DNA of 56,637 bases from a virus (IMGVR_UViG_3300035698_015386:1-56637); one strand, 5' to 3'. Numbered from the stretch's first letter, positions 12,468 to 33,204 are shown. Notes: generated by a model from the sequence alone, not told the origin. Program-made: numbers and translations.

Positions 12468-12997
12468 TAGAACACCCCTCTTTCAGCGCAAAACATTACG
12501 CCTTTAATATGCTGACCGTCTTTTTTGAAACGCTTTGGAATAATAGCCAGTTCTTCCAGTCCGGTTTTTTTGCAAAACTGAATTGCGAATTTATTGTCTT
12601 CGGGAACTATCCCGGTTATGACAGAAAATTGACCCGCCAAAAGCCGTTTATAAACTTCTCTTGTGGCAAATATGGAGGCCTCGTGATTCCAATATTCAGA
12701 GAAAACACAAAAATGTCCCTGTCCAGTATCGTCCCGAATATCATCCACCAGACCAAATCCGGCAATGTCGCCCTTGTAAAGAATGGTAAAAAACATCAGT
12801 CTTGATTCATACTTAACCCTTGAGAGAAAGACCTTCTTGTCTGGATTCGTATCCCCGAAAAAAAACATGTCCATCGTGCCGTCCCTTTCCGACCTGTCCA
12901 ACAAGCCAATAATAAAGCTATCGGTCATGTTTCTTACGCCATCGTCTTCATTATAAACGTCCATATAGACATCTTCTGTCTTAAATTCCGTACTCAT
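12467..12997 (-). CDS. GNAT-like acyltransferase in the virion gene block
   Basis: The 176-residue protein has the look of a GNAT fold. A strand-rich centre (LMFFTILYKGDIAGFGLVDDI) is followed by a helix and the C-terminal pattern DNKFAIQFCKKTGLEEL, which matches the usual Asn-x-Ala-x-x-Phe-x-x-Lys-x-Gly ending of GNAT enzymes. Short-tailed phages such as T7 have a GNAT-like protein (gp13) at the matching place beside the internal core genes. The pyrophosphate loop is not obvious, so catalytic activity is uncertain and an assembly role is possible. Confidence 0.6.
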   Translation of the reverse strand: MSTEFKTEDVYMDVYNEDDGVRNMTDSFIIGLLDRSERDGTMDMFFFGDTNPDKKVFLSRVKYESRLMFFTILYKGDIAGFGLVDDIRDDTGQGHFCVFSEYWNHEASIFATREVYKRLLAGQFSVITGIVPEDNKFAIQFCKKTGLEELAIIPKRFKKDGQHIKGVMFCAERGVF

Positions 12998-13238
12998 AAG
13001 GATTCACCTGATTAAAGTTTCCGTCAGAATCGATCACTCCCAAATCAATCAAATCCTGATATGTGATCACCCTGTTGTTTGTGCTCCCGGTCCAAACATC
13101 GATGGTCTTCTTTACCTTGGAACAAAAAAGATATAACGCTTTCGGCTGGAGGTTTCCCGGGACATCCGGTAATTTCGTTGCCGCATATCCGGCTGTTGCA
13201 ATCGCAATTATTATCAATGTAATAAGCAGTTTCTTCAT
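12981..13238 (-). CDS. small exported protein
   Basis: This 85-residue protein opens MKKLLITLIIIAIATAGYA, a textbook Sec signal with an AxA-type cleavage site after residue 19, leaving a mature part of about 66 residues with one Cys. It overlaps the start of the GNAT-like gene by 17 bases and the end of the hub gene by 4, so it is part of the tail block. The function is unknown. It is one of eleven genes here with this kind of N-terminus. Confidence 0.65.
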   Translation of the reverse strand: MKKLLITLIIIAIATAGYAATKLPDVPGNLQPKALYLFCSKVKKTIDVWTGSTNNRVITYQDLIDLGVIDSDGNFNQVNPYEYGI

Positions 13239-15259
13239 TGTCCGAGTTCCCTCATTGATGTAGCAAGGTCAACCTGTCGGATAGGAACATACCCGGAAAT
13301 ACCGATTTCATATACTCGGCCTTTATATCCTGCAGGCAGCTTAAAAGGATCGGAAGAGGTCACAGTCCTTGTCACTTTCGGGGTAGAATTCCCGTTCACG
13401 TAAAGATAAAACGTGACGGTATCGTTTAGTGTCGTAGACTCAAGGTCATATAGATAGTCATCGTTGATAGCCAGTTCGTTTATAGCAGCACAACCTATAC
13501 AGCCGTACAGTGTATGGTTGGATATCATGTCAGCGTTTAGTGTGGCTAAATACGCACTGTCGGCCATGCCCGAGATTAAATCATCATACCAATACTCATC
13601 CCTTGTAACTCTCGCGCATGAGAAATTTACCAGGGAGTTCAACTGAAACTTTTTCGACTTCCAGATATACCGCTTGAAATTATACGTCTCCCCTTCCCAT
13701 TCTTTTATTTTGTAAACATACGAAGATGTCGGGTCCTCGGGGTCTTCAAGTTCGTTCGCGATAACGTAGAACTTTCCATCGGCTATCGAAACATATCCAG
13801 CATAAACCGTGTCTTTCAGGGTTGAATAAGTGCTTAGTTCAAGGTCTAATACAAAGCTGGTTCCGGAAGAGGAAGAATTAAAGGCAAAGTATTTACTCGC
13901 ATAAACAAACCCCTGAATGTACGTCGGTAAAATATCAATCCAGTCGTCTCGGGTTAAGATATTTGATGTTAATGTCCTGATTCCGTCCTGGTCTATAATT
14001 TTCAAGCCGTCTCTTTTAGAGGCGAAGATAACCGCGTTTTGCACCCTTGCGATTGACTTCTTGGCAGCGCAGGGACAGAAATCGTTCAACTGGATAAACG
14101 TCATTGTCTCCGGATCGTCGCCATACCCGACCGAATGATAACCCTCTGTTAAAACAACGACTGTTGAACCGAAAAAGGAAATCCCAACAATGTCATGTTC
14201 AAAGGAGATTGTATCAGATCCCCATGCGTGAGGCAGGAAAGGTTCGGAAAAATAAAGTTCGTTCCCCTTGAACCCCATCATTCTTCCGGAAGGAAGTACC
14301 TGTAAATGAGTTAGTCCGGCAACCGGAGGCCCCCAGTCGGAAGAAGGACACACAGAACCGGTATCAAGGTCTGCCGTGTCGATGTTGTCTAAGAGAGTGT
14401 AATATTCCCAGTAATCAGTTCCGGACCCGCCTACGCCATTTGTGGCATCGTCCGGGTCACAGCTTGTACTATCATGAACGCATTTATAGATTATATCATC
14501 AGAGCCGTCGTCAAACTGCCAGTATTCGCCATCATCGCCGCTTGAAACTCCGGTTGCCCAGTCTCCCTCGATTGTAGGAAGAGTATAGTCTTTGACAAAT
14601 ACAAACTCTGCCGTATCTTCTGAGCCTGCGACGGTCCTATATACTCGTAATGTTTCAATTTCCCTGTCCGCAGGAATGGCCTCGATTTTTGTAATGTCAA
14701 CCGTGTCGTCGGCCAGAAAAGCACTTCCCGGCAAATCAGTTATCGGGCAAGGAGGACCTTCCTCACCGTAAGCCGTCACTCGGCAATAAGCATAGATTCT
14801 TTCTTCTTCATTTGAAGATCCGCCGGTATTGACAGCAACCTCGGGCTTGAGTGTAGGTGCAGGAACACCAACCTTGTAATATGCCGGATATACCAAATCG
14901 TTCGCGTATGCCCGAACTTCTGTCTCTCCTGAAAAATACGTTCTCGCATAAGCGTCTTGAGCAATAGGTGATATGGCATAGTCCAGATCGTCAGCGTCCG
15001 TGATATAATCACCGTCATACTCAAAAAGAGATTCAAAATCGCTCCCTGAAAGAACCTCCGTCTCAGAAGTATCCCGAAAGGACCGTAAGTCTCCCCTTTC
15101 GAGCTTGCAGTTTTCAGCCGTCTTCGCCTGGGTGACATCTAAAAGGTTATCAGCAAGGCGAGGATTTTCACCCTCAAATGCCTTTATGGATATGCTTCCG
15201 GCAAAAGACTGGGAGGCTACAAAAAGCGTAAGAAATAGTATGTATAAGAGTTTTTTCAT
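13235..15259 (-). CDS. tail hub or stabilisation protein (beta-propeller-like) with signal peptide
   Basis: The 674-residue product has repeated beta-strand segments such as LPSGRMMGFKGNELYFSEP and VQNAVIFASKRDGLKIID, the pattern of propeller proteins that build short tails (compare P22 gp10-type stabilisation proteins). It lies after the adaptor and fibre genes, as expected for a hub. Its N-terminus MKKLLYILFLTLFVASQSFA is a clean signal peptide, which is odd for a protein assembled in the cytoplasm. A CPC motif and other cysteines near residues 390-395 and 610-620 would suit disulphides outside the cytoplasm. Tail role is inferred from position and build. Confidence 0.65.
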   Translation of the reverse strand: MKKLLYILFLTLFVASQSFAGSISIKAFEGENPRLADNLLDVTQAKTAENCKLERGDLRSFRDTSETEVLSGSDFESLFEYDGDYITDADDLDYAISPIAQDAYARTYFSGETEVRAYANDLVYPAYYKVGVPAPTLKPEVAVNTGGSSNEEERIYAYCRVTAYGEEGPPCPITDLPGSAFLADDTVDITKIEAIPADREIETLRVYRTVAGSEDTAEFVFVKDYTLPTIEGDWATGVSSGDDGEYWQFDDGSDDIIYKCVHDSTSCDPDDATNGVGGSGTDYWEYYTLLDNIDTADLDTGSVCPSSDWGPPVAGLTHLQVLPSGRMMGFKGNELYFSEPFLPHAWGSDTISFEHDIVGISFFGSTVVVLTEGYHSVGYGDDPETMTFIQLNDFCPCAAKKSIARVQNAVIFASKRDGLKIIDQDGIRTLTSNILTRDDWIDILPTYIQGFVYASKYFAFNSSSSGTSFVLDLELSTYSTLKDTVYAGYVSIADGKFYVIANELEDPEDPTSSYVYKIKEWEGETYNFKRYIWKSKKFQLNSLVNFSCARVTRDEYWYDDLISGMADSAYLATLNADMISNHTLYGCIGCAAINELAINDDYLYDLESTTLNDTVTFYLYVNGNSTPKVTRTVTSSDPFKLPAGYKGRVYEIGISGYVPIRQVDLATSMRELGQ

Positions 15260-15265
15260 AAGTTC

Positions 15266-16279
15266 CTAATGAAGCATTGTCACACACATAAAAGATGCGG
15301 ACACGCCAGATTGTACCGAATCGTCATTGTCGTCATTTAAGACCTCTGTGGCGATTACGTCTGCCGCAGTTAGGTATTCCGTGGTAGACTGGCTTATGGT
15401 CTGGTTTCCGGTTCCAACCGCATCCTTTCCCTTGGTCGCCACACTGGTTCCGTTCACCTTGATTCTGAGCGAAAGCCTGTCACCATCAGCGGTCACTCCA
15501 AACTTAGCCTGTGCGATTATAAGATAAAGACCTGTTGTGGGCACCGTAAAATTATCAGAGGCTTGGCTTCCGTGGCTTCCAATATTATGAGAATTCGCGC
15601 CGAAATCCATGTCCTCAACAACGCCATCCGCAATAGCCTGTCCCGAACTGACATACAGTTTACAGCTCGGCTGAACCGCAAGCGTCATATGGCCGTCATC
15701 ATCAACTAAAAGCCCTTTGGTTCCGCCGTCGTCATAAATCTTAACACCGGCAGCACCGGCAGCATTGATTTGGGCTACTGTCGGAGTGGTAAGCGCAGGA
15801 CTCGCGAATGTTCCGGTTGTGACTACGGGAGCCGTTATGGTCTTATTGGTAAGCGTCTGAGTGCCGTCAATCGTTACGATATCCCCGGCATCCGTACCCG
15901 CGACCTTTTCAAGATCCGCCTCAAACCTGTCCAATGTTTCTGCGGTCAATCGACATGCAACGATAGTGGTCGGAGAGGCCGTACAAGACAAACCGGTTGT
16001 TCCCTCCTGGGCTCTCAAGACCGTCAAGGTAGTTCCCGACCGGGTAGTGACCTTAATAATCTCCATGTCACCGTCGGCCTGAATCAGCGTTGCCATAAAC
16101 CAGTCCGTACCGTTCGCAGTGGGCCAGCCGGTAGCATCGTCAATCGTTACGGTAGTCGCAATATTGGTAATATCCCCAGCAAGATCAGCAACCGCCTCGT
16201 TTGCATACTGCTGTTCGGCTGCGAACCCGTAAGACGCCAGGAGTATTAAGGAAAATAAGGTTAAAAATAGCTTTTTCAT
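15266..16279 (-). CDS. tail fibre or appendage protein with C1q/TNF-like C-terminal domain and signal peptide
   Basis: The 337-residue protein carries the repeated fibre motif DGTQTLTNKTITAP near residue 137. Its C-terminus (about residues 225-335: NFTVPTTGLYLIIAQAKF, then LRIKVNGTS) looks like the C1q/TNF-type trimeric domain found at the tips of phage fibres. The first 20 residues, MKKLFLTLFSLILLASYGFA, form a signal peptide. It sits between the adaptor gene and the hub gene. Receptor or surface binding is likely. Confidence 0.65.
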   Translation of the reverse strand: MKKLFLTLFSLILLASYGFAAEQQYANEAVADLAGDITNIATTVTIDDATGWPTANGTDWFMATLIQADGDMEIIKVTTRSGTTLTVLRAQEGTTGLSCTASPTTIVACRLTAETLDRFEADLEKVAGTDAGDIVTIDGTQTLTNKTITAPVVTTGTFASPALTTPTVAQINAAGAAGVKIYDDGGTKGLLVDDDGHMTLAVQPSCKLYVSSGQAIADGVVEDMDFGANSHNIGSHGSQASDNFTVPTTGLYLIIAQAKFGVTADGDRLSLRIKVNGTSVATKGKDAVGTGNQTISQSTTEYLTAADVIATEVLNDDNDDSVQSGVSASFMCVTMLH

Positions 16280-16287: not shown

Positions 16288-16938
16288 CTAAAACATTGTA
16301 CTGCCTGCGTATGTCGCAACGCCTTGAAGATTCTCGCCCTTTCCGTCCGCGATTGCCTTTGCAAATTCATACCCGTACTTATCCGCACGTTTCGGATCGT
16401 ACCAATCCTGCCCCTTCATATTTAGAAGTTCGGCAAGGGCTCCGTTTCGAATGTCGAGAATGTGGTTGTTATAAACGAAGTCCTCGATTGAGGCCCCGGT
16501 CAGAGTAGGCTTAACTGCGACATCTTTCAGGTACAGATTGTCGTCAATATCACTATCCGGAATGGGATAAACTCGAACCTTCCCGTTTTTCATCAAACAG
16601 CAGGCGTATGGATCACCAGTTGTCGTCCTGATATTCCAGTCCACACAATACATATCCAGTTCGCGCTTATTATAGACCCTGATCTTGGTGTCGTCGTCAG
16701 AACCGTCTCCGAGATACGCAGCGCCGATTTCAACCGGAGAATAGTAAGCAACCGCAAAAGGTATGTCGAATTCTGCCGTGGCGGTTACATCAATCACCGT
16801 GGCATCCAATCTAACAGACCGAACCTGTTCGCAAAACTCGATAACCGCAAAGCGGATTGCGCCAACAACCATATCTTTCGGAATATTGGATACGTCATGG
16901 GCAAAATACTGCCTGCACTCTTCAAATGTCTTAGCCAT
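16288..16938 (-). CDS. head-to-tail adaptor or tail tubular-like protein
   Basis: This 216-residue protein has a helical N-terminus followed by beta segments with DIPFAVAYYSPVEI and VRVYPIPDSD, typical of short-tail adaptor and tubular proteins (T7 gp11 type). It follows a second adaptor-like gene, with which it overlaps by 8 bases. No signal peptide is present, unlike the flanking fibre gene. The assignment is by pattern and place. Confidence 0.55.
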   Translation of the reverse strand: MAKTFEECRQYFAHDVSNIPKDMVVGAIRFAVIEFCEQVRSVRLDATVIDVTATAEFDIPFAVAYYSPVEIGAAYLGDGSDDDTKIRVYNKRELDMYCVDWNIRTTTGDPYACCLMKNGKVRVYPIPDSDIDDNLYLKDVAVKPTLTGASIEDFVYNNHILDIRNGALAELLNMKGQDWYDPKRADKYGYEFAKAIADGKGENLQGVATYAGSTMF

Positions 16939-17629
16939 TTCCGGGCTCCTTCGCTGGCGCTATGGCCGCACCTGTTTTGAATTCAATGCCGAGTAGGGAA
17001 AAGAACGACTTTTCGTACCGAATAGACACGTTCCAGTTAGGGAGAGCGTCAAAGTCTACCGAGAAAGCCAGGTTCAGCATCCACGCCTTTAAAGCCGGAT
17101 GGAACTTAACCCCTGCCTCAATGTCCGTTGTGGCGATATCGGCTTCTACGGCATCGGTGAACGCATAAGAATAAGCAATTTCGGCACATACTTTAGTCGA
17201 GGCATGCGCTCTCGGATATGTCCACACGTACCCGGAAGTCTGCTGGTCATAACAAAAAAACTCTATCCCGGTTACACCGGTTTCGGAGTGCCAGTCGGAA
17301 AACATGGCTTCTATGTCTTTTTTAGACTTCGGCCCCTTGATCGGTTCTCCGGGGGTTGCTCCATCGACACCCATGTTTCGAGGCATGTCAATTAACTGTA
17401 AGCACTCCGCAGGCAGGGCGTGTAGAGTCTCGTCTGCCGTTAACTCGAACGTTTTGACAAACTTCATGCGAGAGTCGGGCCTTGCAATCACAAGGGCTTT
17501 TTGGGCTTCATTGTAGAAATTCACCCACTTATCAACCGTGAGCCTTTCATATCTTTGCCCAGCTTCCGCATCAGCGTTATAATCATTGTACTGCTGTGCG
17601 GCCTCTATTATGAGCGCGGAAACTTTCAT
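16931..17629 (-). CDS. head completion or adaptor protein
   Basis: The 232-residue protein contains the helical opening, LTVDKWVNFYNEAQKALV, and a beta-rich centre (LHALPAECLQLIDMP, SGYVWTYPRA) typical of the phage adaptor family that caps the portal in podoviruses. It overlaps the genes on both sides by 4-8 bases, showing tight coupling in the head-tail block. I call it an adaptor from order: coat, decoration, small protein, adaptor, adaptor, fibre, hub. Confidence 0.55.
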   Translation of the reverse strand: MKVSALIIEAAQQYNDYNADAEAGQRYERLTVDKWVNFYNEAQKALVIARPDSRMKFVKTFELTADETLHALPAECLQLIDMPRNMGVDGATPGEPIKGPKSKKDIEAMFSDWHSETGVTGIEFFCYDQQTSGYVWTYPRAHASTKVCAEIAYSYAFTDAVEADIATTDIEAGVKFHPALKAWMLNLAFSVDFDALPNWNVSIRYEKSFFSLLGIEFKTGAAIAPAKEPGNG

Positions 17630-18205: not shown

Positions 18206-18730
18206 CTACTCTCGCATATCGAACAGGAGCACCGTCACAGTAACCTTACCACTGCTCAACGTCCCTGTAAGTTCAGCGATTTCCATATCCAATGTTGTAG
18301 CTGTTGTTACGTACCCCTGAACAGCGAAGATGGGAACGCCGTCTGTGGTACATGTTACGGCATTATACCCATCGACAAAGTTGTCAGGGTCAGCTTCCGG
18401 ATGCGATGTCCACCCAAGGTCCAGCTTACACACGGTCGCACCTGAATTAATCGCGGTATGAGCGTGAATATTGGCAGCAATAACCGCTGTTTGCGGTGGG
18501 ATATCAAATACACTTATGATATCGTTTGCGGCCAATGCGGACCCTTTTTCGGTAAGAGCCGTCGCAAAGTTAATGGTTCTTGTAAGCCGTCTTGCCCCGA
18601 CGCCCCATGCATCGGACACGGTAGTCCCTGCGGTGTTTGAACCGGAAGGGGTCATTACGATAGTGCTTGCAAAACCAATAGACGTAAATGCAAACACAAG
18701 AAAAATCAGTATAGCTATGGTCTTTTTCAT
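18206..18730 (-). CDS. putative capsid decoration protein with signal peptide
   Basis: The 174-residue protein follows the coat gene directly, the usual place of a decoration or head-stabilising protein, and its mature part is beta-rich (DIIVSVFDIPP-like and VTVTVLLFDMRE strands). It begins MKKTIAILIFLVFAFTSIGFA, a signal peptide with cleavage expected after residue 21. A decoration protein with a Sec signal is unexpected. The alternative is an exported host-surface protein that happens to sit here. Confidence 0.6.
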   Translation of the reverse strand: MKKTIAILIFLVFAFTSIGFASTIVMTPSGSNTAGTTVSDAWGVGARRLTRTINFATALTEKGSALAANDIISVFDIPPQTAVIAANIHAHTAINSGATVCKLDLGWTSHPEADPDNFVDGYNAVTCTTDGVPIFAVQGYVTTATTLDMEIAELTGTLSSGKVTVTVLLFDMRE

Positions 18731-18742: not shown

Positions 18743-20562
18743 TTACGCCTTATAGACGTAGCCGACTACAAGAGCCTGCTCTTTAATGGTTTTGTAGTCA
18801 TGGACATTCAAACCCCTTATCAGCTGACCGAAAGTTCTCTCGGATTTCAGAGAGTCCATTTCGTTCATTTGAGCCGCAAACGTAATCGCGGCCTTGTTGC
18901 CGGCCATCGGGTAGTAACAGGTGTTGTCACCGTCAGTTACCTTATGGATCTGGTTGGATTTGAGTATCGGGTTATTGTCGATGTTGCCGATTCTGCCGTG
19001 TCGAATGGGCGACTTGCTGTCACCTGTCATGGAAACGTCCTTAATCTCAGACTTCTTGATCAGGTTAGCCATCCATGAAGGAATCGCATACCACCGACTC
19101 GTTTCGGGAACGTTCTGTTCGTCCAGCACACTGGTCATGTCGGACATGAAATCAAGAACATTGTCCTTTGTGACCGCATACGGTGTGCCGGAAACGCCCA
19201 TGTTGTAACTTGAAGAATCCAAACCGGCTGTCAGTCCAACATTGCTGGCGTGACCATCGGCATAAACCGTAGCAAGCCCCTCAGAGTCAATCTTGACTTT
19301 CATCTGTTGCCCTGCGTCCTGGGACCATTCACTCATAAGCTGAACGTCGGCCTGGTGAGCATCGATGTCGTCGCAAATGAAATTGAAGTACTTGGCTCTC
19401 TCAATCGGAAATTCGACGAGAGGATTGTCCGGATGCTGAATGTCAAGAGTCTGCCCTTTCTCGTAATCGAGTATATTGATATCGGGCCGGGTACGAATCT
19501 TGACCACATCGCCCTGGTTTTTTATCTCCGTTGTGTTTACGTCCGGGGCTCTTTATCCCCAGCTCCTACGTGTTTCCACGCAGACCAGACTATATCTTCG
19601 GTTTGTTCGGGCCTCTGCCCTTTTTTCCGGTGTGGTGCAGTTTCACATGATGCCCAACGAGCATCAGTTCTAAATTTTCAATGCGGTTGTCTGCCTTATC
19701 GCCGTTTACATGATGAACACACTCACCATTTTCCAAGTATCTGCCGAGATACTTTTCCATAACAAGGCGATGCTCTCTAACGTACCCCTTGCTGTCAGCG
19801 AGAGGATGTCCGGCAACCTGAACCAAAACATAGCCTGAATCGGTCTTTATAAATCCCTTGTGGAATTTAGACCGTTCAATCTCAATCCCATATCGCTTCG
19901 CCTGTTGGCGAATATGTATGGGCGTGAAATTCAGCTTTTTGGCTATTTCTGAGGCGGTCATTCCCCTTTTTGCCAAACGTCTAATTTTGGCGGCAACGTC
20001 CTTCGGATTGTTGCGCTGATTTCTTTCTATCCCGTACTTTTTCATATAGTTAAGTATGAGTTTTTTAGAAACGCCAAACCTGCTGGCAACCCTTTCCATT
20101 GATCCCAGTTCCCTGTATGCACTCTCAAGTTCCCTGTGATCCGCATTGAATTTTTTTACAACCATGACAAACCCTTTCCTTATTGTGTTTATGCCAATTT
20201 GGATTAGGCTTATCATATCACCGTAATTATTAATTTCCAAGTCTTTTTTTAATAAAAACAAACCGCTCCGCGCTCGTGTCGCTTTACCGCCATACCCAAA
20301 ATATGGGATTAGGCTCCATGCGTTAGTCGTTGAACCTTCACTCTGTTTCCAGAGAGCTTGGCTGCTGATTGCCCTCGGCTTTACGTTAGGGTGTCCCAGC
20401 AATTCACGGAGTTTAAAGAGAGCCATATTAACCCTCGTAGTCCGTATTGCACATAGCTGGAAAAATGCTGCTATGGTAATACTTGACGAGAAGATTAGTG
20501 GTCCACACCTCCGGAATAAAATTTCCGGAATACTGTGGAACACCCGCTGATGCTGTTATCAT
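18743..20562 (-). CDS. major capsid protein, split gene: exon 1 20562-20431, exon 2 19528-18743
   Basis: Joining the two exons gives a 305-residue coat protein. Exon 1 (44 codons) starts MITASAGVPQYSG behind AAGGAGAGAAATT and ends ...NTDYEG. Exon 2 (261 codons) starts EIKNQGDVVKIRTRP and ends GYVYKA. The joined sequence reads smoothly in frame and has the look of HK97-fold coat proteins of short-tailed phages. Scaffold lies upstream and a decoration-like gene downstream. Exon 2 alone would be mis-called as a 254-aa protein starting at GTG 19507. The splice points come from the intron's P1 helix and terminal G. Confidence 0.85.
19529..20430 (-). ncRNA. group I self-splicing intron in the coat gene (902 nt)
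   Basis: The last exon bases GAGGGT pair with GCTCTC just inside the intron (loop TAATATG), giving a P1 helix with the required U-G wobble at the 5' splice site. Core elements follow: P (AATTGCTGGGA), Q (AATCAGCAGCC), R (GTTCAACGACTAA at about 20321-20336) and, after the endonuclease, S (GAAGATATAGTCT at about 19587-19599). The intron ends in G at 19529 before GAG. R and S pair as P7. The layout is close to group IA introns such as T4 td. It contains the HNH gene and would be removed from coat mRNA without proteins. Confidence 0.9.
19590..20165 (-). CDS. intron-encoded HNH homing endonuclease
   Basis: I start this 191-residue protein at the ATG at 20165 behind AAGGAAAGGG; the open frame continues further up only through intron and exon sequence. 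The N-terminal half holds two helix-turn-helix-like stretches (VASRFGVSKKLILNYM; ASEIAKKLNFTPIHIR) for target recognition. The HNH nuclease lies at the C-terminus: EHRLVMEKYLG, then HHVNGDKADNRIENLEL around residues 151-167. It would cut intronless coat genes and spread the intron. The TAG stop lies within the intron's S element, so gene and ribozyme core overlap. Confidence 0.88.
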   Translation of the reverse strand: MVVKKFNADHRELESAYRELGSMERVASRFGVSKKLILNYMKKYGIERNQRNNPKDVAAKIRRLAKRGMTASEIAKKLNFTPIHIRQQAKRYGIEIERSKFHKGFIKTDSGYVLVQVAGHPLADSKGYVREHRLVMEKYLGRYLENGECVHHVNGDKADNRIENLELMLVGHHVKLHHTGKKGRGPNKPKI

Positions 20563-20592
20563 AATTTCTCTCCTTCTCCATGGCTGATTTGC

Positions 20593-20612
20593 AGCACCTT
20601 AGAGAAGGTGCT
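20593..20612 (-). other. hairpin between scaffold and coat genes
   Basis: AGCACCTT and AAGGTGCT form a perfect 8-bp stem with a 4-base loop, between the scaffold stop and the coat ribosome site. There is no T-run, so it is probably an mRNA stability or processing element that lets coat be made in excess over scaffold. Confidence 0.5.
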
Positions 20613-20616
20613 TGAA

Positions 20617-21699
20617 TCAACCCATTATTCGCCCATCAATTCGGGCTTGCTGAATGTCCTGAAAAATTGCCTCTGCGTTTTCTCGTAGGTTCAACGGCAA
20701 ACTCCCCGTCGCATAGTCCCTTACGAACTTATCCGCCCATGCCTTTTGGTACTGCTGTCCCTGTGCCTTTGTAACTGGCTGGTTCGGAGCGCCTTGGGCT
20801 GGTGACGGAGACACATTGGTTAAATCTTTTACAGGATCGCTATTGTCAGTTTTTACAGGAACCTCTTTTTGTTTGTTGATAAAGTCCCGAAAGACCTTTT
20901 CAACCGCCGGGAGATTCATATCTTTGTGAGCCGTCTTAAAAGGGGCCATTCTGGATTGAGTCCCGCCGAGTGGAATTTCATTCAGGTACTTGACGAAATC
21001 AGGGTTCCCCGGCACATTGCGTTCCGGAACTCCGTTTAGCGCCACAAAGTCGCCAAGAGAGCCACCATCTTCCGCAATTAGCCGATTAACAGCTGCTACA
21101 AGGTTGTTCTGATAGGTGCGCTCATCATTGTTCTTGGTTGTCTGCTGCACCTCTCCTACCGTGTTTTGCACCGTACTTACCTTGCCGAGTATCTTCTGAA
21201 GACCCTGCTTAAAAGCATTGCCAAGGTCCACAAACTCGCTTCCGTACCCACTGAGGGTTTGAGGATCGAAATCCATCAAATCCTCGACGGTTTCCAGTTT
21301 CGGTTGTTCCGGTGCTGCCGGGACTGTCTCAAGCTCCTCAACCCTTTTTTGCAGAACAAAATTCTGACTGTTCAGGTATCGTTCGCTTTCTTCCAGCTCG
21401 GCTATTCTGGTTCGCAGGGGAGGCAATTCCGCTTTGTATTTGCCTTCCATTACATTAAATCTCTGCTGCCACGTCTCTTCCCCTGCTGCCAGGTTGGGTT
21501 CGGTCGGACTTCCTTCGGGAGTTGGTTCAAGAGGATTGCCGTCAGGGTCGAGAGCTTCCGTCGAAGGGTTCTCAATTCCGTCTCCTGCAGTTCCTTCACC
21601 AGTATTCGCCATGTTTTCGGCTAAATCAGCCGGTAATCCGGGCATCCTTCCTTCTTCCAAGTCTTTTTCTGCTTGCTGTAACTGTTTCGGTAATGTCAT
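20617..21699 (-). CDS. capsid scaffolding protein
   Basis: The 360-residue protein is acidic and polar, with Pro- and Glu-rich N-terminal sequence, a coiled coil near residues 90-125 (LRTRIAELEESERYLNSQN, LQKRVEELE), a helical middle, and a Gln/Pro linker before a basic-acidic C-terminus. This build and its place between portal and coat are those of scaffolding proteins, which shape the procapsid and then leave. It starts behind AAGGAGGAAAG. Confidence 0.75.
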   Translation of the reverse strand: MTLPKQLQQAEKDLEEGRMPGLPADLAENMANTGEGTAGDGIENPSTEALDPDGNPLEPTPEGSPTEPNLAAGEETWQQRFNVMEGKYKAELPPLRTRIAELEESERYLNSQNFVLQKRVEELETVPAAPEQPKLETVEDLMDFDPQTLSGYGSEFVDLGNAFKQGLQKILGKVSTVQNTVGEVQQTTKNNDERTYQNNLVAAVNRLIAEDGGSLGDFVALNGVPERNVPGNPDFVKYLNEIPLGGTQSRMAPFKTAHKDMNLPAVEKVFRDFINKQKEVPVKTDNSDPVKDLTNVSPSPAQGAPNQPVTKAQGQQYQKAWADKFVRDYATGSLPLNLRENAEAIFQDIQQARIDGRIMG

Positions 21700-21769
21700 T
21701 CTTTCCTCCTTGAGCCTGTTCTCAGGGATTCCTAAGAGCCTGAGTGCAGGGATTCATTAGGGTTTAGGG

Positions 21770-21964: not shown

Positions 21965-21989
21965 TTTGATTCACCTCCTTTTGTGAAAT

Positions 21990-22036
21990 AAAAAAAGCCC
22001 CACGGATTCCTGTCTTTCTCTGGAACCCAGTGAGGC
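21990..22036 (-). terminator. rho-independent terminator, possibly an attenuator
   Basis: On the minus strand GCCTCAC...GTGGGGC closes a long stem that also pairs GGGTTCC with GGAATCC, followed by TTTTTTTATTT. It lies only about 25 bases before the start codon of the 64-aa gene. No promoter fits in between, so capsid transcription must read through it or be made from a promoter further up. Confidence 0.75.
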
Positions 22037-23443: not shown

Positions 23444-24000
23444 TGAATCGTCCCTTTCGCCCCGGGCAAGATAACGTTCGTTCGGACCAGCCAAAACTCA
23501 GGACCTAAAACACGTTCATACTTCATTTTTTCCGGGTGGCTGATAAAGTAAGCCAGCTCCTTGTCAAGATAGATATAAAGCCCTGCTTTCCAATTCTCGT
23601 CCACCTGAGAAGTCAGATGCCTTGAAAGCCGTATCCTGTTTTCCTGATATAGCTTATTGGCTGCATCCTTCCTCGCCAGGACAGTATCTGTAAAAAAACG
23701 GTCAAAGAGAAAACCGGGTGCTCCCATTACGCCTAAATTTCTCATGACGTGGTTGATGAGTTTGTCGATGAGAAAAGAGGCTTCCCTTTTAGAAGCTAAC
23801 TCATGGTCGTGCAGTATCTTATGTGTCTGGTTCCACTGTTCTTCCTCATCCCTGACAACCTCTCCCAGCGTCCGATGATCAGTAATATTATCAAGCTCCT
23901 GCGTGTAAGCCTTTTCACCGCCCACCTCAACGACATTCTCTTCGTCGTGTGACTTTTCGCCTATCTCATTCAACACTTCCTTAATTGAAGGTTCTGGCAT
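23440..24000 (-). CDS. hypothetical protein downstream of portal
   Basis: This 186-residue protein is acidic at its N-terminus and helical in the middle (LASKREASFLIDKLINHVM). It overlaps the portal gene's end by 20 bases and the next gene's start by 4. Small proteins in this place can be portal or maturation accessory factors, but no family is recognised. Confidence 0.55.
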   Translation of the reverse strand: MPEPSIKEVLNEIGEKSHDEENVVEVGGEKAYTQELDNITDHRTLGEVVRDEEEQWNQTHKILHDHELASKREASFLIDKLINHVMRNLGVMGAPGFLFDRFFTDTVLARKDAANKLYQENRIRLSRHLTSQVDENWKAGLYIYLDKELAYFISHPEKMKYERVLGPEFWLVRTNVILPGAKGTIH

Positions 24001-25996
24001 CTGCGCCTCCCTGTTTTCCTCCCGCCTGGTTTGTTTCGGTCCCCTTGGTCACTTGTGGCTGACCAGCGACCGGCTGCATCTGCGAAATTAAAGTTTGTAA
24101 TAAAACATCCTCTTTAGACGGTACAATGTCTGCGGTAGAACTATCGAGCCCTCTAAAGAACTGCCTCAAAAATTCTGAAAGGCCTTCTCTGCCGATTATC
24201 TCAAGTATGGCCGGATGGAGAAGGACCTGCAATGCCTCCTGTCGTCTCACTTGAGCCTGTTCTTTCTGAATCAGGCTTCTTGAGCCAATGGCCTGTAGAT
24301 TAACATCACCCATTCTTAGAATCGGATCAGGATCGTACAGCAATAAATGGGTGTGGGTTGCCTTAATCGACTTGGATATAACCTTCGTGTCAATGTTCCG
24401 AACAGACTTCTTTACGCCCCTGGAGGCGTTTGACATCATCATTGAAAACTGTGTCGCATTGTTAATCGATGCCCCACCCTGTCCGTAAGTATATTTCGGA
24501 ATTCCAGACTTATTGTCCGCCTCTTCTGAAAACTTATCCCAAACCGCTATCAGGTCTGTCACCATCGACTTCGGCTGGAAAAACCACATGGGAGCGCGTG
24601 TGCCGTTCTGGATATCCTTCATTTGAAACTGCCATATCTTGTTCGGTTCCAGCGTCGTTATCTTTTCCCCTGGAGGCATGGCATCTGTGTCTACTCCGAT
24701 TTGAACGCCACTGGCCATACCGATGTTGTTCACAACATTCCTTGCGGCTGCATTACACATTCTTGAACAGTCTTCGATAGTGTCCGGTAATCCATCGCCC
24801 CAAAACTGGCCTTTCTTTTCCCTGAAAGAAACTTTATAATACGGTACCTCCCCGAGAGGGTTTCCGTTCAGTTCGCATTTAATGACATAGTTTCCTATCA
24901 GCCATATTTCAGCATCATAAGAGGTAAACAGATCCGGAAGCCTGTCCGGAGACACGCCATGTTCCACCAGGGACAAACCTTGAATCTTTCCCCACAACTG
25001 CAAGGCATCGATAGTTCCTTCCGGATCCTCTTCGACATTTTTTCTGTACGAAAGTGTGTCCAGGGTGTTTTGATTTGTCTCATAAATCCACTTCCTTAAA
25101 CCGCCCGAACCGTATTCTTGCAAAACAAGCTCAATGGCTGCGTCGTCATATCCTTTCACGCCTCTCAGGGCCTCGATATCTCGAACTCGTAATGTGTGTT
25201 TTTCTATCAGTCCGTCATTAACCGTCCTTGACGCAGGGAAAGGATAAATATCAAACGGGCTTGGAGCTTCCCATGCCATTGATAGCTTTGTCGTCGGTAC
25301 CGGCTCCCCTTGCTGATCCCAGTCCATGACTTTCTTTTGCCTTACGAGCGGGCCTTTTAAAAAGCCTGCCTTGTAATCCACAAAGTCAGATATGAAGTCG
25401 TCAAGTGCGTCTTTCCATCCGGATTCTGCTATAACATCTTTGATTTTGGTTTCAACAGCGGCCTCAACCTCGTTGGCCTTTTCCTGCATTTTCTTCTGAA
25501 TGTGTGCGGATACCATCTTGATTCGCTGGTCTATGTCGGCAGGGGTCACGCCAGCCGCCCCCATCTGAATTGCCATTTCTGTCTCTGCCCTGACTTCTTC
25601 AGCGATCATTTGCGTTTGCTGTGGAGGAAGTGTCGGGACAGGGCTCTTTTGCGCAGAGAAGGGGTCTTCTTCGCCTATAAGAAGGTCGGTAAACCATGCT
25701 TTCGCTGCCTCGGACTTTTCATCATCCAGCCTCATAAAAATAGAAGATCCGCCCTGGGCTTCTATCTTTTGCAAAACATCGGGTTCATAGTCGCCCTTAA
25801 TCCTGCGTTTCACTTTCAGCATTGCGGTTTCAACGTCATTCTTGGCCTTCTTCGCAGACTCCCAACACCGTTGAACGTAACTTGCCAGAGAAGTTATTAC
25901 CTCGTTGGCCTGCCGTTGCTGGGCCTGTGCGGTTCTTTCCTGGTTTTCCGCCTCCGCTATTTGGTCGTTGCTTTGAAATCCTGTTTCAAGTTGCAT
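23981..25996 (-). CDS. portal protein
   Basis: I take the ATG at 25996, behind GCGAGGC, giving 671 residues; an upstream ATG at 26035 lacks a ribosome site. The sequence matches the portal type of short-tailed phages: long N-terminal helices, then VPYYKVSFREKKGQFWGDG with the following helix of ARNVVNNIG, and a Gln-rich C-terminus (QMQPVAGQPQVTKG). The portal forms the dodecameric ring through which DNA enters and leaves. The lysis genes lie upstream and scaffold and coat downstream. Confidence 0.85.
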   Translation of the reverse strand: MQLETGFQSNDQIAEAENQERTAQAQQRQANEVITSLASYVQRCWESAKKAKNDVETAMLKVKRRIKGDYEPDVLQKIEAQGGSSIFMRLDDEKSEAAKAWFTDLLIGEEDPFSAQKSPVPTLPPQQTQMIAEEVRAETEMAIQMGAAGVTPADIDQRIKMVSAHIQKKMQEKANEVEAAVETKIKDVIAESGWKDALDDFISDFVDYKAGFLKGPLVRQKKVMDWDQQGEPVPTTKLSMAWEAPSPFDIYPFPASRTVNDGLIEKHTLRVRDIEALRGVKGYDDAAIELVLQEYGSGGLRKWIYETNQNTLDTLSYRKNVEEDPEGTIDALQLWGKIQGLSLVEHGVSPDRLPDLFTSYDAEIWLIGNYVIKCELNGNPLGEVPYYKVSFREKKGQFWGDGLPDTIEDCSRMCNAAARNVVNNIGMASGVQIGVDTDAMPPGEKITTLEPNKIWQFQMKDIQNGTRAPMWFFQPKSMVTDLIAVWDKFSEEADNKSGIPKYTYGQGGASINNATQFSMMMSNASRGVKKSVRNIDTKVISKSIKATHTHLLLYDPDPILRMGDVNLQAIGSRSLIQKEQAQVRRQEALQVLLHPAILEIIGREGLSEFLRQFFRGLDSSTADIVPSKEDVLLQTLISQMQPVAGQPQVTKGTETNQAGGKQGGADARTFN

Positions 25997-26084
25997 TTTC
26001 GCCTCGCTTTTTCTGTATCCAGAGAAAGAACACAACGATCATTCCCAATAAAACCAGACCGATCTTTTTAAGTTTTTGGGTCAT
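25986..26084 (-). CDS. 32-aa single-span membrane protein
   Basis: MTQKLKKIGLVLLGMIVVFF begins a single hydrophobic helix with basic ends. The ATG overlaps the end of the endolysin-like gene in another frame, and the stop overlaps the portal start. The ribosome site is weak. Its place beside endolysin and holin-like genes suggests a lysis role, but this is uncertain. Confidence 0.45.
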   Translation of the reverse strand: MTQKLKKIGLVLLGMIVVFFLWIQKKRGENAT

Positions 26085-26764: not shown

Positions 26765-27090
26765 TTACTCCGAAGTAGCATGGATGCCTGTCTGGTCCGG
26801 TATGCACTTTCCCGGCAAAATCACAGGGTCGCTATGCCCCCCTTCACCAGAAATAGGCATGACAGCCGTAACCGTTAAAGAAATATCATTGTCCATTGAC
26901 GGTAGGTTTTCTATCTCGGATATTTCAATCGCGTAAACATTCCCCGGTACGCTCTGGCAAAGAACTCCATCAGCGTAAATGTTGTACGATGTCGCAGCAC
27001 AATTATTTCCCCAATAAAATTCTTCCGCACTTACAGATGTTACCATTGCCAAGCTTACCAAAACTGCCAATATGATCAGTAATCGTTTCA

Positions 27091-27091
<1 letters not shown>
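26765..27091 (-). CDS. small exported protein, fibronectin-III-like
   Basis: This 108-residue protein begins MKRLLIILAVLVSLAMVTSVSA, a signal peptide. The mature part has the strand pattern of a single Ig-like or fibronectin-III fold (SYNIYADGVLCQSVPG, ISLTVTAVM) with three cysteines. It overlaps the end of the poly-Asp adhesin gene. A surface or tail-associated role is likely. Confidence 0.6.
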
Positions 27092-28542
<1,451 letters not shown>

Positions 28543-28550: not shown

Positions 28551-31500
28551 CTAAAACATTAATATTACCGCACCGCCTGTATACACTCCAGTGATCGTTT
28601 CTGTTTCTCCGTCACTTAGAATCACTTCCTGATTTGCCGGGGTTATTTTTCCAGACACATCGTTAAATTCAACCGTGTAAGTTCCCGGTGTAATGTCTTC
28701 TTCGGTTCCTTCGTTCAACCATGATCCTGTACCAACTCGCCTCCACTGCCCTGATCCACCATCTCCAGTGATATTGACGGTTAGGTTTGAAAGAATACCA
28801 GAATTAAATGCAAAAACTCCGGCAGTACCAGACATGGTAGTCCAGTATATTTTATCTGCATCCGGCCCTTGGAGCGCATGACCGTTGCCAACTCGTTTAT
28901 AGCAACCATAGTCGAAAAAAGGTGAAACTCCCGGCGTGCCTACTGAGAACACGTACCCATTCAAAAGTTCTGACAAATCGCTTGGATCAATCTGATATAT
29001 TGCATCCCTCATCCTATCGCCCGAAGGCTGTCGAATGAAAGACACCCACAAAAGCTGATCTCCCACAGCAATAAAGTTCCCCACTGCGCCATGATAGTGC
29101 GACCAATCGTCACGCAAGGAAACCGATGCAGCCCAATTGCCAGAAGTATAAACACTCCCTGTAGCAATTCTATAAGCAATAAACTCTTCGTATGCGTCGC
29201 CTGACATGTTTGTCCAGCGACAAGTAAAAATAGTTTTATTGCTATCCTGTGGGTTAAGGGTTAGAGACACCTCGCTCGGCTTTAGATCATTTCCAAGATA
29301 TGTATAATCGCCCACTACAGCAAGAGACACCCAACTGCCAGAACCATTCCAAGCCGGGGGCGAACTGTCAGTGTCGAAAGAAGCCAGTTTAATTTCATGT
29401 GTGGCTTCTACAAGCCAGTTGATACGTAAAGTAACAAGTATTTTAGTGGCATCGTTCGGGTCTATCATTACCCCTGCGTCAGGGTACACGTCTCTTAAAA
29501 CAATGGGAGTGCCAGAGTCTTCAAGAATAACGGGTGAACCAAGTACGCCGCCACTTACAGACATTTTATACACATATGTTGAATACTCATCCGTAAGGTC
29601 AACATCGTAATCATATAAAGCATTGGCAACAATATAAATATCATCACCTATTGTAATGGTTCCTTGAAATCTTGCGGAGGTTACGGTTTCACCTATGTCG
29701 GCACCAATGTCTATCGTTTCGTATGTCCACGTAGCACCATTGTCAGTGGTTTTAAAAAGGATAAACGCATCAACGCCACCGAAAAGAGTGCCAAGATTAC
29801 AACCCACTATCATATCGCCATTTGATGCAAAGGCTGAAGTCCCCGGGCTATAAAAGAATTGATGCGACATTATATGAAGATCATCACCATACCACTCGGC
29901 ATTAGCAGTATAATTTGTTTCATCCACTGCCCCGAATTGTACTTCATCTATGGTAAAATCAGAATAGGCATTGCCATTTAGAGTATTGACAGCCGTATTA
30001 CCGTCAACTATTACAGACAAATTAGCTGTATTCCCTGTGCCTGATTGAGCGTTTGCCATTAACTGTATTGTATAGTATGTATCTAACTCCAATTTTATAT
30101 TAGAATCGTATTTTGTAGTATTCCATTGACAGCTCCAATAATAAAAACCACCCCTTTCAACTGCCAAACCTGTAAAGACGTTAGCACCGTCTTTTATAGA
30201 TATAATATGCGCCGCATCACCGGCACCGATTGATGTTATTTTCACTTTTTTTAATTGGCTAACAGACTCAGAATCAACAGCACCGTTTGGCACTGCTTTG
30301 TGCGCTTCTCCGTCACCTGTGATGTGTAGTTCACCGCCTGTAGTTTCAACCGTTCCAGTACCCGAAGTTGTAAACCCTGCGGTTGCCAAATCGGTAGTGA
30401 ATGGCTCTTCAAGATCACCGGGATATGCCACGCCAGGATTTGAATAACTCGAAAACACCATGTCAAAATTGTTGACATCTTCGATATATAATTCAAAAGG
30501 ATCAGCGGTGCCAGAACCGACATTGAGATAATCAACCCAAAATGAAATAGCGACATCGTTAGAAGCTGCATACAGAAAAATATCTGTATTGGCGTTTGCC
30601 GATACATTCATTGTTCCTATATATTCCCATTGCTTGCCATCTTCTTTTCTGTAATAATATGCCCCTGTTGAGTTATGATATACTCTAAAATCATACCATG
30701 TTCCATTGTCGTGTGTTATCGCAAAATTGGTGCCATCCCTGCCATAGTAAGAATTTGCGTATATATCCAACATGGATTGATATGCACCATCACGAATCTG
30801 CATTCTTATATTATTAGCACTTCCGTAATTGCCGACACCCGAAGTTTTTAAACCGAACTCCGAAAAACAAGGATTTGGCAATGCGCCGGGAGAAGTCTGT
30901 TGTATGGTTTCAGGATCCCCACCGGTGGCGTCTGTAACTAAAATGCAAGACCTTCCATCTTCAGTAACAGACGAATAAGTTCCACCGGAATTGATTTCTG
31001 TCCATGACGCGACCGAACTTCCATCATCAGAATAAACGGGCGTATCCATTGAAGGGAAAAAAGCTAACCCGTTTGCAGGCTTTGAAATTAAAGTAATATC
31101 AGAAAATGAAAAAAGTGGTTCAAAATCGTTCAATTCAATTAATTCGACAAGTGAAGAAAACGCACTATCATCATAAATGTAACAGCGCAACTGATTTACG
31201 TTCCGCTTTATATCAAGATAGTAATCTGTGCTGTAGCTTAGTGCTGCACTTTCATCTTCTGTACCTTCATCAATATTTCTCAGTGTAATCTTATTATCGT
31301 TAACAATAATAACTAAACCAGTTGTCCACTCCTTCCAATTATTGTTTGCGCCTTCATCTGACAGTCCAAAAATGCACGTTTCCAAGATAGGTTCAGAACC
31401 TAAATTAAGAATGTATCTTCTCTTTAGTCCATTAAGACCTTGACCTTTTATGTATTTCGATAGACGAACAGCCGCCGTGCCACTGTTCAATGTGGCTTTG

Positions 31501-31694
31501 GTTGAAGTAGCGGTAAGATTACCGCCCGTGTCAACCTCTGTATAAGTGGTCAGGTCTTCAACAGCACCAAAACAGGTAACAGTAATGCAAAGGAATAATA
31601 TTATATATTGAAAAATCTTTAAGAATCTGTTCAAACTAAAACGCTCCTTAAATGCCCCAAAGTGTTTATTGAGCAAGCCCTTCTCGGTATTCAT
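28551..31694 (-). CDS. large exported adhesin or tail-spike-like protein
   Basis: The 1,047-residue protein is mostly beta structure. The first 45 residues contain a long basic N-region and a hydrophobic core (IILFLCITVTCFG), resembling a signal peptide with an extended start. Later segments look like concanavalin-type lectin folds (LYIEDVNNFDMVF) and BNR/sialidase-type repeats (FKTTDNGATWTYETI, a typical Asp-box). The C-terminus (PGTYTVEFNDVSGKITP) is PEGA-like. I read it as a glycan-binding or glycan-cleaving tail spike. Confidence 0.65.
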   Translation of the reverse strand: MNTEKGLLNKHFGAFKERFSLNRFLKIFQYIILFLCITVTCFGAVEDLTTYTEVDTGGNLTATSTKATLNSGTAAVRLSKYIKGQGLNGLKRRYILNLGSEPILETCIFGLSDEGANNNWKEWTTGLVIIVNDNKITLRNIDEGTEDESAALSYSTDYYLDIKRNVNQLRCYIYDDSAFSSLVELIELNDFEPLFSFSDITLISKPANGLAFFPSMDTPVYSDDGSSVASWTEINSGGTYSSVTEDGRSCILVTDATGGDPETIQQTSPGALPNPCFSEFGLKTSGVGNYGSANNIRMQIRDGAYQSMLDIYANSYYGRDGTNFAITHDNGTWYDFRVYHNSTGAYYYRKEDGKQWEYIGTMNVSANANTDIFLYAASNDVAISFWVDYLNVGSGTADPFELYIEDVNNFDMVFSSYSNPGVAYPGDLEEPFTTDLATAGFTTSGTGTVETTGGELHITGDGEAHKAVPNGAVDSESVSQLKKVKITSIGAGDAAHIISIKDGANVFTGLAVERGGFYYWSCQWNTTKYDSNIKLELDTYYTIQLMANAQSGTGNTANLSVIVDGNTAVNTLNGNAYSDFTIDEVQFGAVDETNYTANAEWYGDDLHIMSHQFFYSPGTSAFASNGDMIVGCNLGTLFGGVDAFILFKTTDNGATWTYETIDIGADIGETVTSARFQGTITIGDDIYIVANALYDYDVDLTDEYSTYVYKMSVSGGVLGSPVILEDSGTPIVLRDVYPDAGVMIDPNDATKILVTLRINWLVEATHEIKLASFDTDSSPPAWNGSGSWVSLAVVGDYTYLGNDLKPSEVSLTLNPQDSNKTIFTCRWTNMSGDAYEEFIAYRIATGSVYTSGNWAASVSLRDDWSHYHGAVGNFIAVGDQLLWVSFIRQPSGDRMRDAIYQIDPSDLSELLNGYVFSVGTPGVSPFFDYGCYKRVGNGHALQGPDADKIYWTTMSGTAGVFAFNSGILSNLTVNITGDGGSGQWRRVGTGSWLNEGTEEDITPGTYTVEFNDVSGKITPANQEVILSDGETETITGVYTGGAVILMF

Positions 31695-31717: not shown

Positions 31718-32425
31718 TTAAGCTCCGCCATCAGTAAATGTTCCATAGATTGTCTGTGCCTGCCAATCATAGGCGCCTGCACCTGTTTGGAAAGTAAAAA
31801 ACATAATCATGTCACCAACGGCACTCGACCCTGCGTTATTACTTACCTTATCTGCATCATCTAAAGCCGTACCGTCAAAGTATATTTTATCACCAGCACC
31901 AGCTTTAATATGCCATGTCTGCGCTGCTGCGCCATGTACGGCTAAGAATTTCAACCCCTTGGTTGCCGCTGGAAGGGTAGTTGTTGTTGGTGCAGCCATG
32001 CCGTAGTTGTTAAGCAATGTCCCTTTGCATTCTGCGGCTGTTAATGTATCTGTTGAAGTTGTTACTACTTCTTGAAAAGCAACTGACCAAAAACCTGTGA
32101 CCACTTCGTTGTCTCCAAGGCTTGCTTTGCCCTCAAACTCGTCCCTGATAGCTCCTTTGGTTGCTCCATGTGCGCTGAGGTTCCACGTAGATTCATCGTA
32201 GGCCGTGTCATCAACTATATATGTCATTACTTGCAAAACTGTTGAATACTCACTGGTTCCATCAGCCCCATCAGTTGTGTTGGAAATATTTTGAAGCATC
32301 AATATATCAGCCCCATCAGGAGACGAATTGTTAGAGTACGTTGTTTGCCAACCGTCAGCAGCGTAGGCGAATGTTGCCATCAATAAAACATAGGTGATTA
32401 TAATAAACCTGTCTAACTTTTTCAT
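31718..32425 (-). CDS. exported fibre-like protein
   Basis: The 235-residue protein begins with a signal peptide (MKKLDRFIIITYVLLMATFAYA) and continues with Thr-, Gly- and Asp-rich beta sequence (PTTTTLPAATKGLKFLAVHG), as in phage fibre tips and structural appendages. It lies between the large adhesin and the next small exported protein. No specific family is recognised. Confidence 0.55.
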   Translation of the reverse strand: MKKLDRFIIITYVLLMATFAYAADGWQTTYSNNSSPDGADILMLQNISNTTDGADGTSEYSTVLQVMTYIVDDTAYDESTWNLSAHGATKGAIRDEFEGKASLGDNEVVTGFWSVAFQEVVTTSTDTLTAAECKGTLLNNYGMAAPTTTTLPAATKGLKFLAVHGAAAQTWHIKAGAGDKIYFDGTALDDADKVSNNAGSSAVGDMIMFFTFQTGAGAYDWQAQTIYGTFTDGGA

Positions 32426-32427: not shown

Positions 32428-32637
32428 TTACCTCGTATCTGTCATACAGTTTCCCTGAGTGCCAGCAATACAGGCCCCTTTGGTATCAAGCCATGCATTA
32501 GCAGGCACACCACCGCCCCCTGTATTGAAATATCCAAAACTCCAAAACGCAGCCGAAGCGGTGCCGGCCAGCAAAAGAATAAAAACTATTGACGGTATTA
32601 AAAGTAATATTGGCTGAATTTTAAGTATCTTTTTCAT
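32428..32637 (-). CDS. small exported protein
   Basis: I place the start at the ATG at 32637, behind AAAGGT, giving 69 residues. A signal peptide (MKKILKIQPILLLIPSIVFI, then LLLAGTASA) is followed by a 40-residue Gly-rich mature part with two cysteines. The start overlaps the 56-aa gene upstream. Confidence 0.5.
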   Translation of the reverse strand: MKKILKIQPILLLIPSIVFILLLAGTASAAFWSFGYFNTGGGGVPANAWLDTKGACIAGTQGNCMTDTR

Positions 32638-32791
32638 TTTTCTTACCTTTCTTGGCCCCGAACAATTTATCAAAGCCCTCAAGAACAAGACCCGCATTAA
32701 TCATAGCGTAATCTACTCTTGCTTCAGCATTTGGATCACGCCTTAAACACGATTCAACCACCCTGATCCATACTTTTTCTCTTGTTTTCAT
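32621..32791 (-). CDS. 56-aa protein paralogous to the N-terminus of the gene at 36252
   Basis: The ATG at 32791 follows AAGGAGG, giving MKTREKVWIRVVESCLRRDP and ending ...KDT. It resembles the first 45 residues of the zinc-ribbon protein at 36252 (SREEVWMRAVEATL ... VLDEFDKRF against VLEGFDKLF). A duplicated small helical domain is likely. The function is unknown. Confidence 0.6.
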   Translation of the reverse strand: MKTREKVWIRVVESCLRRDPNAEARVDYAMINAGLVLEGFDKLFGAKKGKKNEKDT

Positions 32792-32823
32792 TCTCTTCTA
32801 ATCCTCCTTAAACAAGGAATCGC

Positions 32824-33204
32824 TTAATAATCACACTTTCCGTCCGACTGAATATAGCCAACGTCAATATGAGCGCCGGCAACGGTTGATGTATAAAAAA
32901 GATTGCCCTCGAACCATCTAAAGTTTTCAAACGGCCTGCCGGTTGATTCAGGGTTGGCCGAACCTTTTGCGGTCCACCTTCCGACCTCTCTTCCGGCTGC
33001 GGATGCCTCGAAAAGAATAACCGTCACATCGCTTGCTGTCGGAGTGACCTGTAATGAGGTGGCATACCCAGAGCCGGTATATAATGTTCCGGACGTTGAC
33101 CCTGTAGCCGAAGCTGAACACCCTCGGTCCCTGCCTGCAAAAGAAGGTGCGGCCATCAGTAAAATTATCAGTATGATTGTCAGTACAAGTTCAAATCGTT
33201 TCAT
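32824..33204 (-). CDS. exported protein in the adhesin block
   Basis: The 126-residue product has a signal peptide (MKRFELVLTIILIILLMAAP then SFAG) and a mature part with Ser/Thr/Gly-rich beta sequence, two cysteines near the ends (GCSAS and KCDY) that could form a disulphide. Its start overlaps the upstream stop. It may be a small fibre or head-fibre protein. Confidence 0.55.
   Translation of the reverse strand: MKRFELVLTIILIILLMAAPSFAGRDRGCSASATGSTSGTLYTGSGYATSLQVTPTASDVTVILFEASAAGREVGRWTAKGSANPESTGRPFENFRWFEGNLFYTSTVAGAHIDVGYIQSDGKCDY

What the first reader, a model, noticed from the sequence alone, without database searches (positions are those of the whole stretch)
12981..33204. Ten signal peptides in the leftward structural block (eleven genome-wide)
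Genes at 12981, 13235, 15266, 18206, 26765, 27091, 28551, 31718, 32428 and 32824 (plus 8) begin with a basic start, hydrophobic core and AxA-type cleavage site. At least three (hub, fibre, decoration-like) sit in standard virion positions. Phage parts are normally made and assembled in the cytoplasm. This suggests exported virion parts, assembly at the envelope, or an unknown use of cleavable N-termini. I know of no described system like this.
Basis: partly seen in the sequence, partly recalled or inferred. Interest (0 to 1): 0.8.

Follow-up and report, generated by a model that had tools for sequence, protein, structure and literature searches.

The report
Phage coat parts carrying export signals
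An uncultured bacterial virus and its closest relatives carry ready-to-cleave export signals on the proteins that make the outside of the virus particle (head cement, tail hub, tail fibres), which suggests that these parts leave the cytoplasm before the particle is finished, something I found no description of for tailed phages.

Summary
Ten leftward genes (12981-33204), plus gene 8, encode textbook Sec-type signal peptides; two need a corrected internal start (28551: TTG at 31634; 32428: ATG at 32637). The background is about 1% of 2,080 genes in homologous loci (10 of ~26 here: binomial 2e-13). The phage is a complete, temperate Bcep22/GP4-like podovirus.

Three signal-bearing proteins match chains of the solved Ralstonia phage GP4 virion: tail hub, tail fibre, capsid cement. 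In cultured phages these proteins start with Met about where the window's mature part would begin, so the signal is a precise ~20-residue addition. Capsid, portal, connector rings, scaffold, terminase and inner proteins carry none. All three known lineages of the clade keep signals on hub, fibre, cement and a small protein, in diverged letters; outside it none of ~84 hubs and ~43 cements scores as one. Some related uncultured phages have signals on fibre or accessory genes only.

Best explanation (0.5): outer parts are Sec-exported, cleaved, and added to cytoplasmically filled heads in the periplasm or lysate. Export, cleavage and presence in virions are untested; SignalP was unavailable and the host is unknown.

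The parts
12981..13238 (-). 85-aa protein after the hub, signal MKKLLITLIIIAIATAGYA/ATKLPD; fused to a longer (639 aa) protein in relative G005; place of the small protein BcepIL02 gp64 / POI1126 gp22
   Evidence: likeness to fibre N-termini only suggestive
13235..15259 (-). Tail hub/nozzle homologue (674 aa), signal MKKLLYILFLTLFVASQSFA/GSISIKAF; matches GP4 portal-tail chain 8jov_A (6 copies)
15266..16279 (-). Tail fibre homologue (337 aa), signal MKKLFLTLFSLILLASYGFA/AEQQYAN; matches GP4 fibre 8jov_1 (18 copies)
18206..18730 (-). Capsid cement protein homologue (174 aa), signal MKKTIAILIFLVFAFTSIGFA/STIVMT; matches GP4 cement protein 8h89_J; directly after the capsid gene
26765..27091 (-). 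108-aa signal-bearing protein, conserved with a signal in G001/G004; first gene of the fibre/spike cassette
27091..28542 (-). 483-aa signal-bearing protein; G001/G004 have a 592-aa signal-bearing beta-helix protein (likely spike) in the corresponding place
28551..31634 (-). Large signal-bearing protein; true start is TTG at 31634 (AAGGAG 9 nt upstream), signal MNRFLKIFQYIILFLCITVTCFG/AVEDL; G001/G004 have a 1303-aa signal-bearing, fibre-like protein in the same cassette
31718..32425 (-). 235-aa signal-bearing protein, MKKLDRFIIITYVLLMATFAYA/ADGWQ
32428..32637 (-). Short signal-bearing protein; start is the internal ATG at 32637, MKKILKIQPILLLIPSIVFILLLAGTASA/AFWSF
32824..33204 (-). 126-aa signal-bearing protein, MKRFELVLTIILIILLMAAPSFA/GRDRG; homologue with a signal in G001/G004
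8..307 (+). Eleventh signal-bearing gene (99 aa, MIMKRLIPIILLCVMTTSAWA/EVLIK), outside the structural block, function unknown
16288..17629 (-). Two connector proteins without signals; match the 12-copy GP4 chains 8jov_G and 8jov_2
18743..26035 (-). Core without signals: capsid protein (18743-19507 plus first exon near 20510-20565), scaffold-like 20617-21699, portal 23981-26035

Best explanation
The outer parts of this podovirus virion (head cement, tail hub, fibres and probably the whole fibre/spike cassette) are made as pre-proteins, exported through the host Sec system and cut by signal peptidase; the mature proteins then have about the same extent as the ordinary cytoplasmic versions in cultured relatives. 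The core (capsid shell, scaffold, portal, connector rings, inner proteins, terminase) has no signals and is built and filled in the cytoplasm. When the holin opens the inner membrane, filled heads meet the stored outer parts in the periplasm or lysate, where cement, hub and fibres bind and finish the particle. Shown here: in-frame signals with plausible start sites, precise addition in front of conserved virion domains, retention under sequence divergence, the outer/core split, restriction to certain lineages. Inferred: translocation, cleavage, presence in virions, and the late finishing step.
For: Signals on hub, fibre and cement homologues of solved GP4 virion chains. Cultured homologues start with Met about where the mature part would start. 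Signals kept with changed letters and indels on hub, fibre, cement and 12981 in all three clade lineages. In the window the outer proteins have them and the core has none (4 of 4 vs 0 of 8, Fisher p=0.002; one of the four, 12981, is a weak virion assignment). Hub and fibre have no second start that would give a signal-less form, and the hub profile or protein finds only one copy in the genome. From general knowledge, not tested here: P22 tailspike, lambda gpD and T4 Soc/Hoc can bind preformed particles in vitro, so late addition of outer parts is physically possible.
Against: No experiment: no proof of export, cleavage or virion presence. SignalP not run. A hub normally closes the filled head, so heads would have to stay sealed without it. 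No conserved cysteine pair or other clear sign of adaptation to the periplasm. Host unknown.
Confidence: 0.5

Rival explanations
1. Membrane tether: the N-terminal segments insert in or bind the inner membrane and hold the outer parts on its cytoplasmic side, so heads dock there and assembly is membrane-bound but cytoplasmic; the segment is kept, or removed late.
For: Hydrophobic, basic N-termini would target membranes; gives membrane assembly without needing heads to cross the membrane.
Against: Small-x-small cleavage sites at the right distance in nearly every case, and cultured homologues start near that site: a pure tether needs neither. By the usual topology of signal peptides the body would still be translocated.
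Confidence: 0.2
2. Dual use: part of each protein escapes export and builds the virion in the cytoplasm as usual, while exported copies serve another purpose at the envelope, such as masking receptors, excluding other phages or changing adhesion of lysogens.
For: Temperate phage with an integrase and a Wzy_C protein that may change the host surface.
Against: One copy of each gene and no alternative start for a cytoplasmic form of hub or fibre; cement and hub have no obvious envelope role.
Confidence: 0.14
3. Relics: fibre and spike genes were captured from secreted bacterial proteins with their signals, which have no present role.
For: Spike-like beta-helix proteins carry signals here and in other lineages, and fibre-type genes are the commonest bearers.
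Against: Hub, fibre and cement have ordinary phage bodies with the signal added in front; the pattern is kept while the letters diverge in three lineages.
Confidence: 0.1
4. The signals are mispredictions or chance hydrophobic N-termini.
For: The scorer is home-made and was not trained like SignalP.
Against: Background about 1% of genes, 0 of 229 internal controls, plausible start sites, conservation in relatives.
Confidence: 0.04

Closest known systems
Bcep22-like podoviruses (Lessievirus BcepIL02, Namazuvirus POI1126, Ralstonia phage GP4)
   Same: Same structural gene order and homologous portal, capsid protein, cement, connectors, fibre, hub, N-acetyltransferase and giant DarB-type protein.
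   Different: Their hub, fibre and cement begin without any signal; here each has an added signal peptide.
Uncultured relatives G407, G007 and L059 (IMG/VR 3300035698_021780, 3300035638_000003, 3300014613_000331)
   Same: Signals directly before fibre domains or on consecutive genes of the fibre region.
   Different: Where present on the contig, hub (G007, L059) and cement (G007, G407) have no signal; separate branch of the gp13 tree.
Filamentous phages (Inoviridae)
   Same: Virion proteins made with Sec signal peptides and assembly at the envelope (general knowledge; reviewed in PMC4823517, located).
   Different: Filamentous phages extrude naked DNA through the membrane while coating it; this is a tailed dsDNA phage with packaged heads and no sign of such extrusion genes among the families searched.
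Exported endolysins of tailed phages (signal-peptide Lys44 of fOg44, SAR endolysins)
   Same: Tailed-phage proteins sent out by host Sec (PMC6116005).
   Different: Those are lysis enzymes, not virion parts.

Membership tests
Bcep22-like podovirus | Homologous terminase, portal, capsid protein, connectors, hub and giant DarB-type protein in the same order | tested here: met
Bcep22-like podovirus | Short-tailed particle morphology | not testable with these tools
   no particle images; inferred from homology to the GP4 portal-tail complex
Sec signal peptide (signal peptidase I type) | Basic n-region, hydrophobic h-region, small residues at -3/-1, no lipobox | tested here: met
Sec signal peptide (signal peptidase I type) | Directs export and is removed | not testable with these tools
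   needs an experiment or N-terminal peptides
GP4 cement protein (gp1) family | Sequence match and gene position directly after the capsid gene | tested here: met
Filamentous-phage type secretion-assembly | Zonula-occludens-toxin-like ATPase (pI) and secretin-like exit genes | tested here: inconclusive
   none seen among the window proteins scanned with Pfam or PHROGs; not every small gene was scanned

The most novel reading that the evidence does not exclude
A tailed dsDNA phage that splits virion assembly between two compartments: a DNA-filled core made in the cytoplasm, and an outer coat (cement, hub, fibres) exported by Sec, matured by signal peptidase and added outside the inner membrane; present in full in this clade, with versions limited to fibre or accessory proteins on at least one other branch.
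Probability: 0.4. Interest if true: 0.93.

Novelty: new variant of a known kind. Interest (0 to 1): 0.77.

Why it matters
Tailed phages are taken to be assembled wholly in the cytoplasm. If the outside of a tailed virion is made of exported proteins, assembly would cross a membrane, and periplasmic folding or modification would become available to virions. The clean split between outer and core parts gives a direct test: the N-terminal peptides of hub, fibre and cement in virions or environmental proteomes. Even if the export model is wrong, the repeated, precise addition of signal peptides to conserved virion proteins needs an explanation.

Tried and rejected
Disulphide rationale: cysteines are about three times as frequent in the mature signal-bearing proteins as in the core (1.39% vs 0.48%), but there is no conserved pair in cement, only a modest excess in hub and fibre over their homologues, and much of the contrast comes from cysteine-free inner proteins; not supported. 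Recent copying of one signal cassette between genes: pairwise DNA similarity is only moderately above codon shuffles (z up to 4), which shared composition could give; not supported as recent duplication. Structure prediction of 27091 and 32824 failed (pLDDT 34 and 44), so no fold search was run. Desulfobacterota as host: one Desulfobacteraceae MAG contig encodes a 51% capsid protein, and 4 and 9 of 395 genomes of that phylum match the hub and capsid profiles, but none of the regions read belongs to the window's clade or shows its signals; host left open. 12981 as a fibre N-terminus: hhalign probability only 9%. Literature searches for signal peptides on tailed-phage virion proteins found none, in a library of open-licence papers only.

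Full report
What the window is. The window is an IMG/VR virus record with a 127-base terminal direct repeat, so very probably a complete genome of about 56.5 kb. The leftward block matches Bcep22-like podoviruses in families and order: terminase (34071), portal (23981), scaffold-like protein (20617), capsid protein (18743 and an upstream exon), cement (18206), two connectors (16931, 16288), fibre (15266), hub (13235), a small protein (12981), N-acetyltransferase (12467), inner proteins (11457, 9454) and a 2721-aa DarB/methyltransferase-type giant (1285). An integrase at 52906 marks it as temperate; a Wzy_C (O-antigen ligase family) protein at 40270 hints at a Gram-negative host and surface conversion.

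The signals are real features. SignalP was not at hand, so I wrote a scorer for n-, h- and c-regions and tried it on 29 E. coli-type signals (scores 4.7 to 9.3). The listed genes score 7.3 to 10.7; the other window genes, gene 8 and the Wzy_C membrane protein apart, score below 5. Two genes needed a corrected start: 28551 begins at a TTG (31634) preceded by AAGGAG, and 32428 at an ATG (32637). In homologous loci outside the clade, 24 of 2,080 called genes reach 7. Ten of about 26 genes in this block is beyond chance (binomial 2e-13). The loci are not independent samples, so this number is only a guide.

The bearers include virion parts. A hub profile matches chain A of the GP4 portal-tail complex (8jov, E=2e-203, six copies); the fibre profile matches 8jov_1 (18 copies, E=3.5e-36); the cement profile matches 8h89_J of the GP4 head (E=2e-17). 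The GP4 head paper describes 540 copies of an Ig-like cement protein on the outer capsid surface (PMC9698820). The two signal-less connectors match the 12-copy chains 8jov_2 and 8jov_G. That the six-copy chain is the tail nozzle is my reading of its copy number and complex.

The signal is a precise addition. In cultured phages the same proteins start with Met about where the window's mature protein would start: hub MPAIKLTAFTGEQPRL in POI1126 against ..SFA/GSISIKAFEGENPRL; fibre MAVVLTNNATSLLA against ..GFA/AEQQYANEAVADLA; cement MATITTLSNPTYATG in a Rhizobium phage against ..GFA/STIVMTPSGSNTAG. PHROG fibre and hub profiles built from other phages also begin to match just after the signal.

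It is kept while its letters change. Four IMG/VR records with near-identical proteins (G001-G004), plus G005, give with the window three lineages (capsid protein 70-76% identical). Wherever the gene is complete, hub, fibre, cement and 12981 carry signals with different residues and small indels. Outside the clade, 0 of 84 distinct hubs and 0 of 43 distinct cements reach a score of 6 (three cements score 5-6 and do not look like signals). Portal, terminase, gp13 and gp14 show none there either, nor does the capsid protein in that survey; one capsid protein outside the clade (L151) does have a signal-like N-terminus, found in a second scan. On a gp13 tree the full-signal clade is one group (SH-aLRT 100), with L151 and L056 as its nearest rows.

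A milder version elsewhere. On a separate branch of the same tree (SH-aLRT 83, with some signal-less rows), G407 has signals on three consecutive genes after its contig start, two of them of the fibre family; G007 has four consecutive signal-bearing genes between connector and hub; L059 has a signal before a fibre domain fused to a beta-helix. A further family with the motif NTTGNVWYV, found between portal and capsid gene in G407, carries signals in its relatives L271/L272 and L273 too, while a homologue in an environmental podovirus record (MW202647) does not. So signals on accessory virion-type proteins recur in this broad group, and the window's clade has them on hub and cement as well. Whether fibre signals came first is a guess.

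Most likely working. Outer parts have signals and core parts have none. That fits two-compartment assembly: the core is filled in the cytoplasm, and exported, matured outer parts wait in the periplasm until the membrane opens. Shown: signals, placement, conservation, outer/core split. Inferred: export, cleavage, presence in virions, late addition. Rivals are membrane tethering, a second role for exported copies, and relics of captured secreted genes.

Limits. Host unknown; no experiment. Six of the ten bearers are put in a fibre/spike cassette by position and by their counterparts in G001/G004 (a beta-helix protein and a 1303-aa fibre-like protein, both with signals). The novelty claim rests on searches of open-licence papers and on my own knowledge.

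Noticed in passing
window 19566-20440 (- strand): Group I intron (RF00028, 66 bits) with an HNH-endonuclease reading frame interrupts the capsid protein gene; the first exon begins MITASAGVPQYSGNFIPEVW.
   Followed up: partly
L186:12738-13712 (L151, IMGVR_UViG_3300002460_000706): A major capsid protein with a signal-like N-terminus (MKRIFMLALAWLIAPFVLGIGVAAA-SGHPQYSG), AAAGGA 8 nt before the ATG and no good start downstream; this phage is among the nearest rows to the window's clade on the gp13 tree.
   Followed up: partly
L269:12741-14207, L271, L273: A phage protein family (NTTGNVWYV motif) found between portal and capsid gene in G407 carries signal peptides in all three lineages read.
   Followed up: partly
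window 1285-12467 and 20617-21699: The inner and scaffold-like proteins (11457, 9454, the 2721-aa giant, 20617) contain no cysteine at all in nearly 4,000 residues.
   Followed up: no
window 40270-41364: Multi-spanning protein with a Wzy_C (O-antigen ligase) domain, a candidate for surface conversion of lysogens.
   Followed up: no
L082:16083-16644, L094:3901-4624: Signal-bearing, curlin-like proteins (DQSG..A.IDLEQLG, likeness by eye) in related uncultured phages.
   Followed up: no
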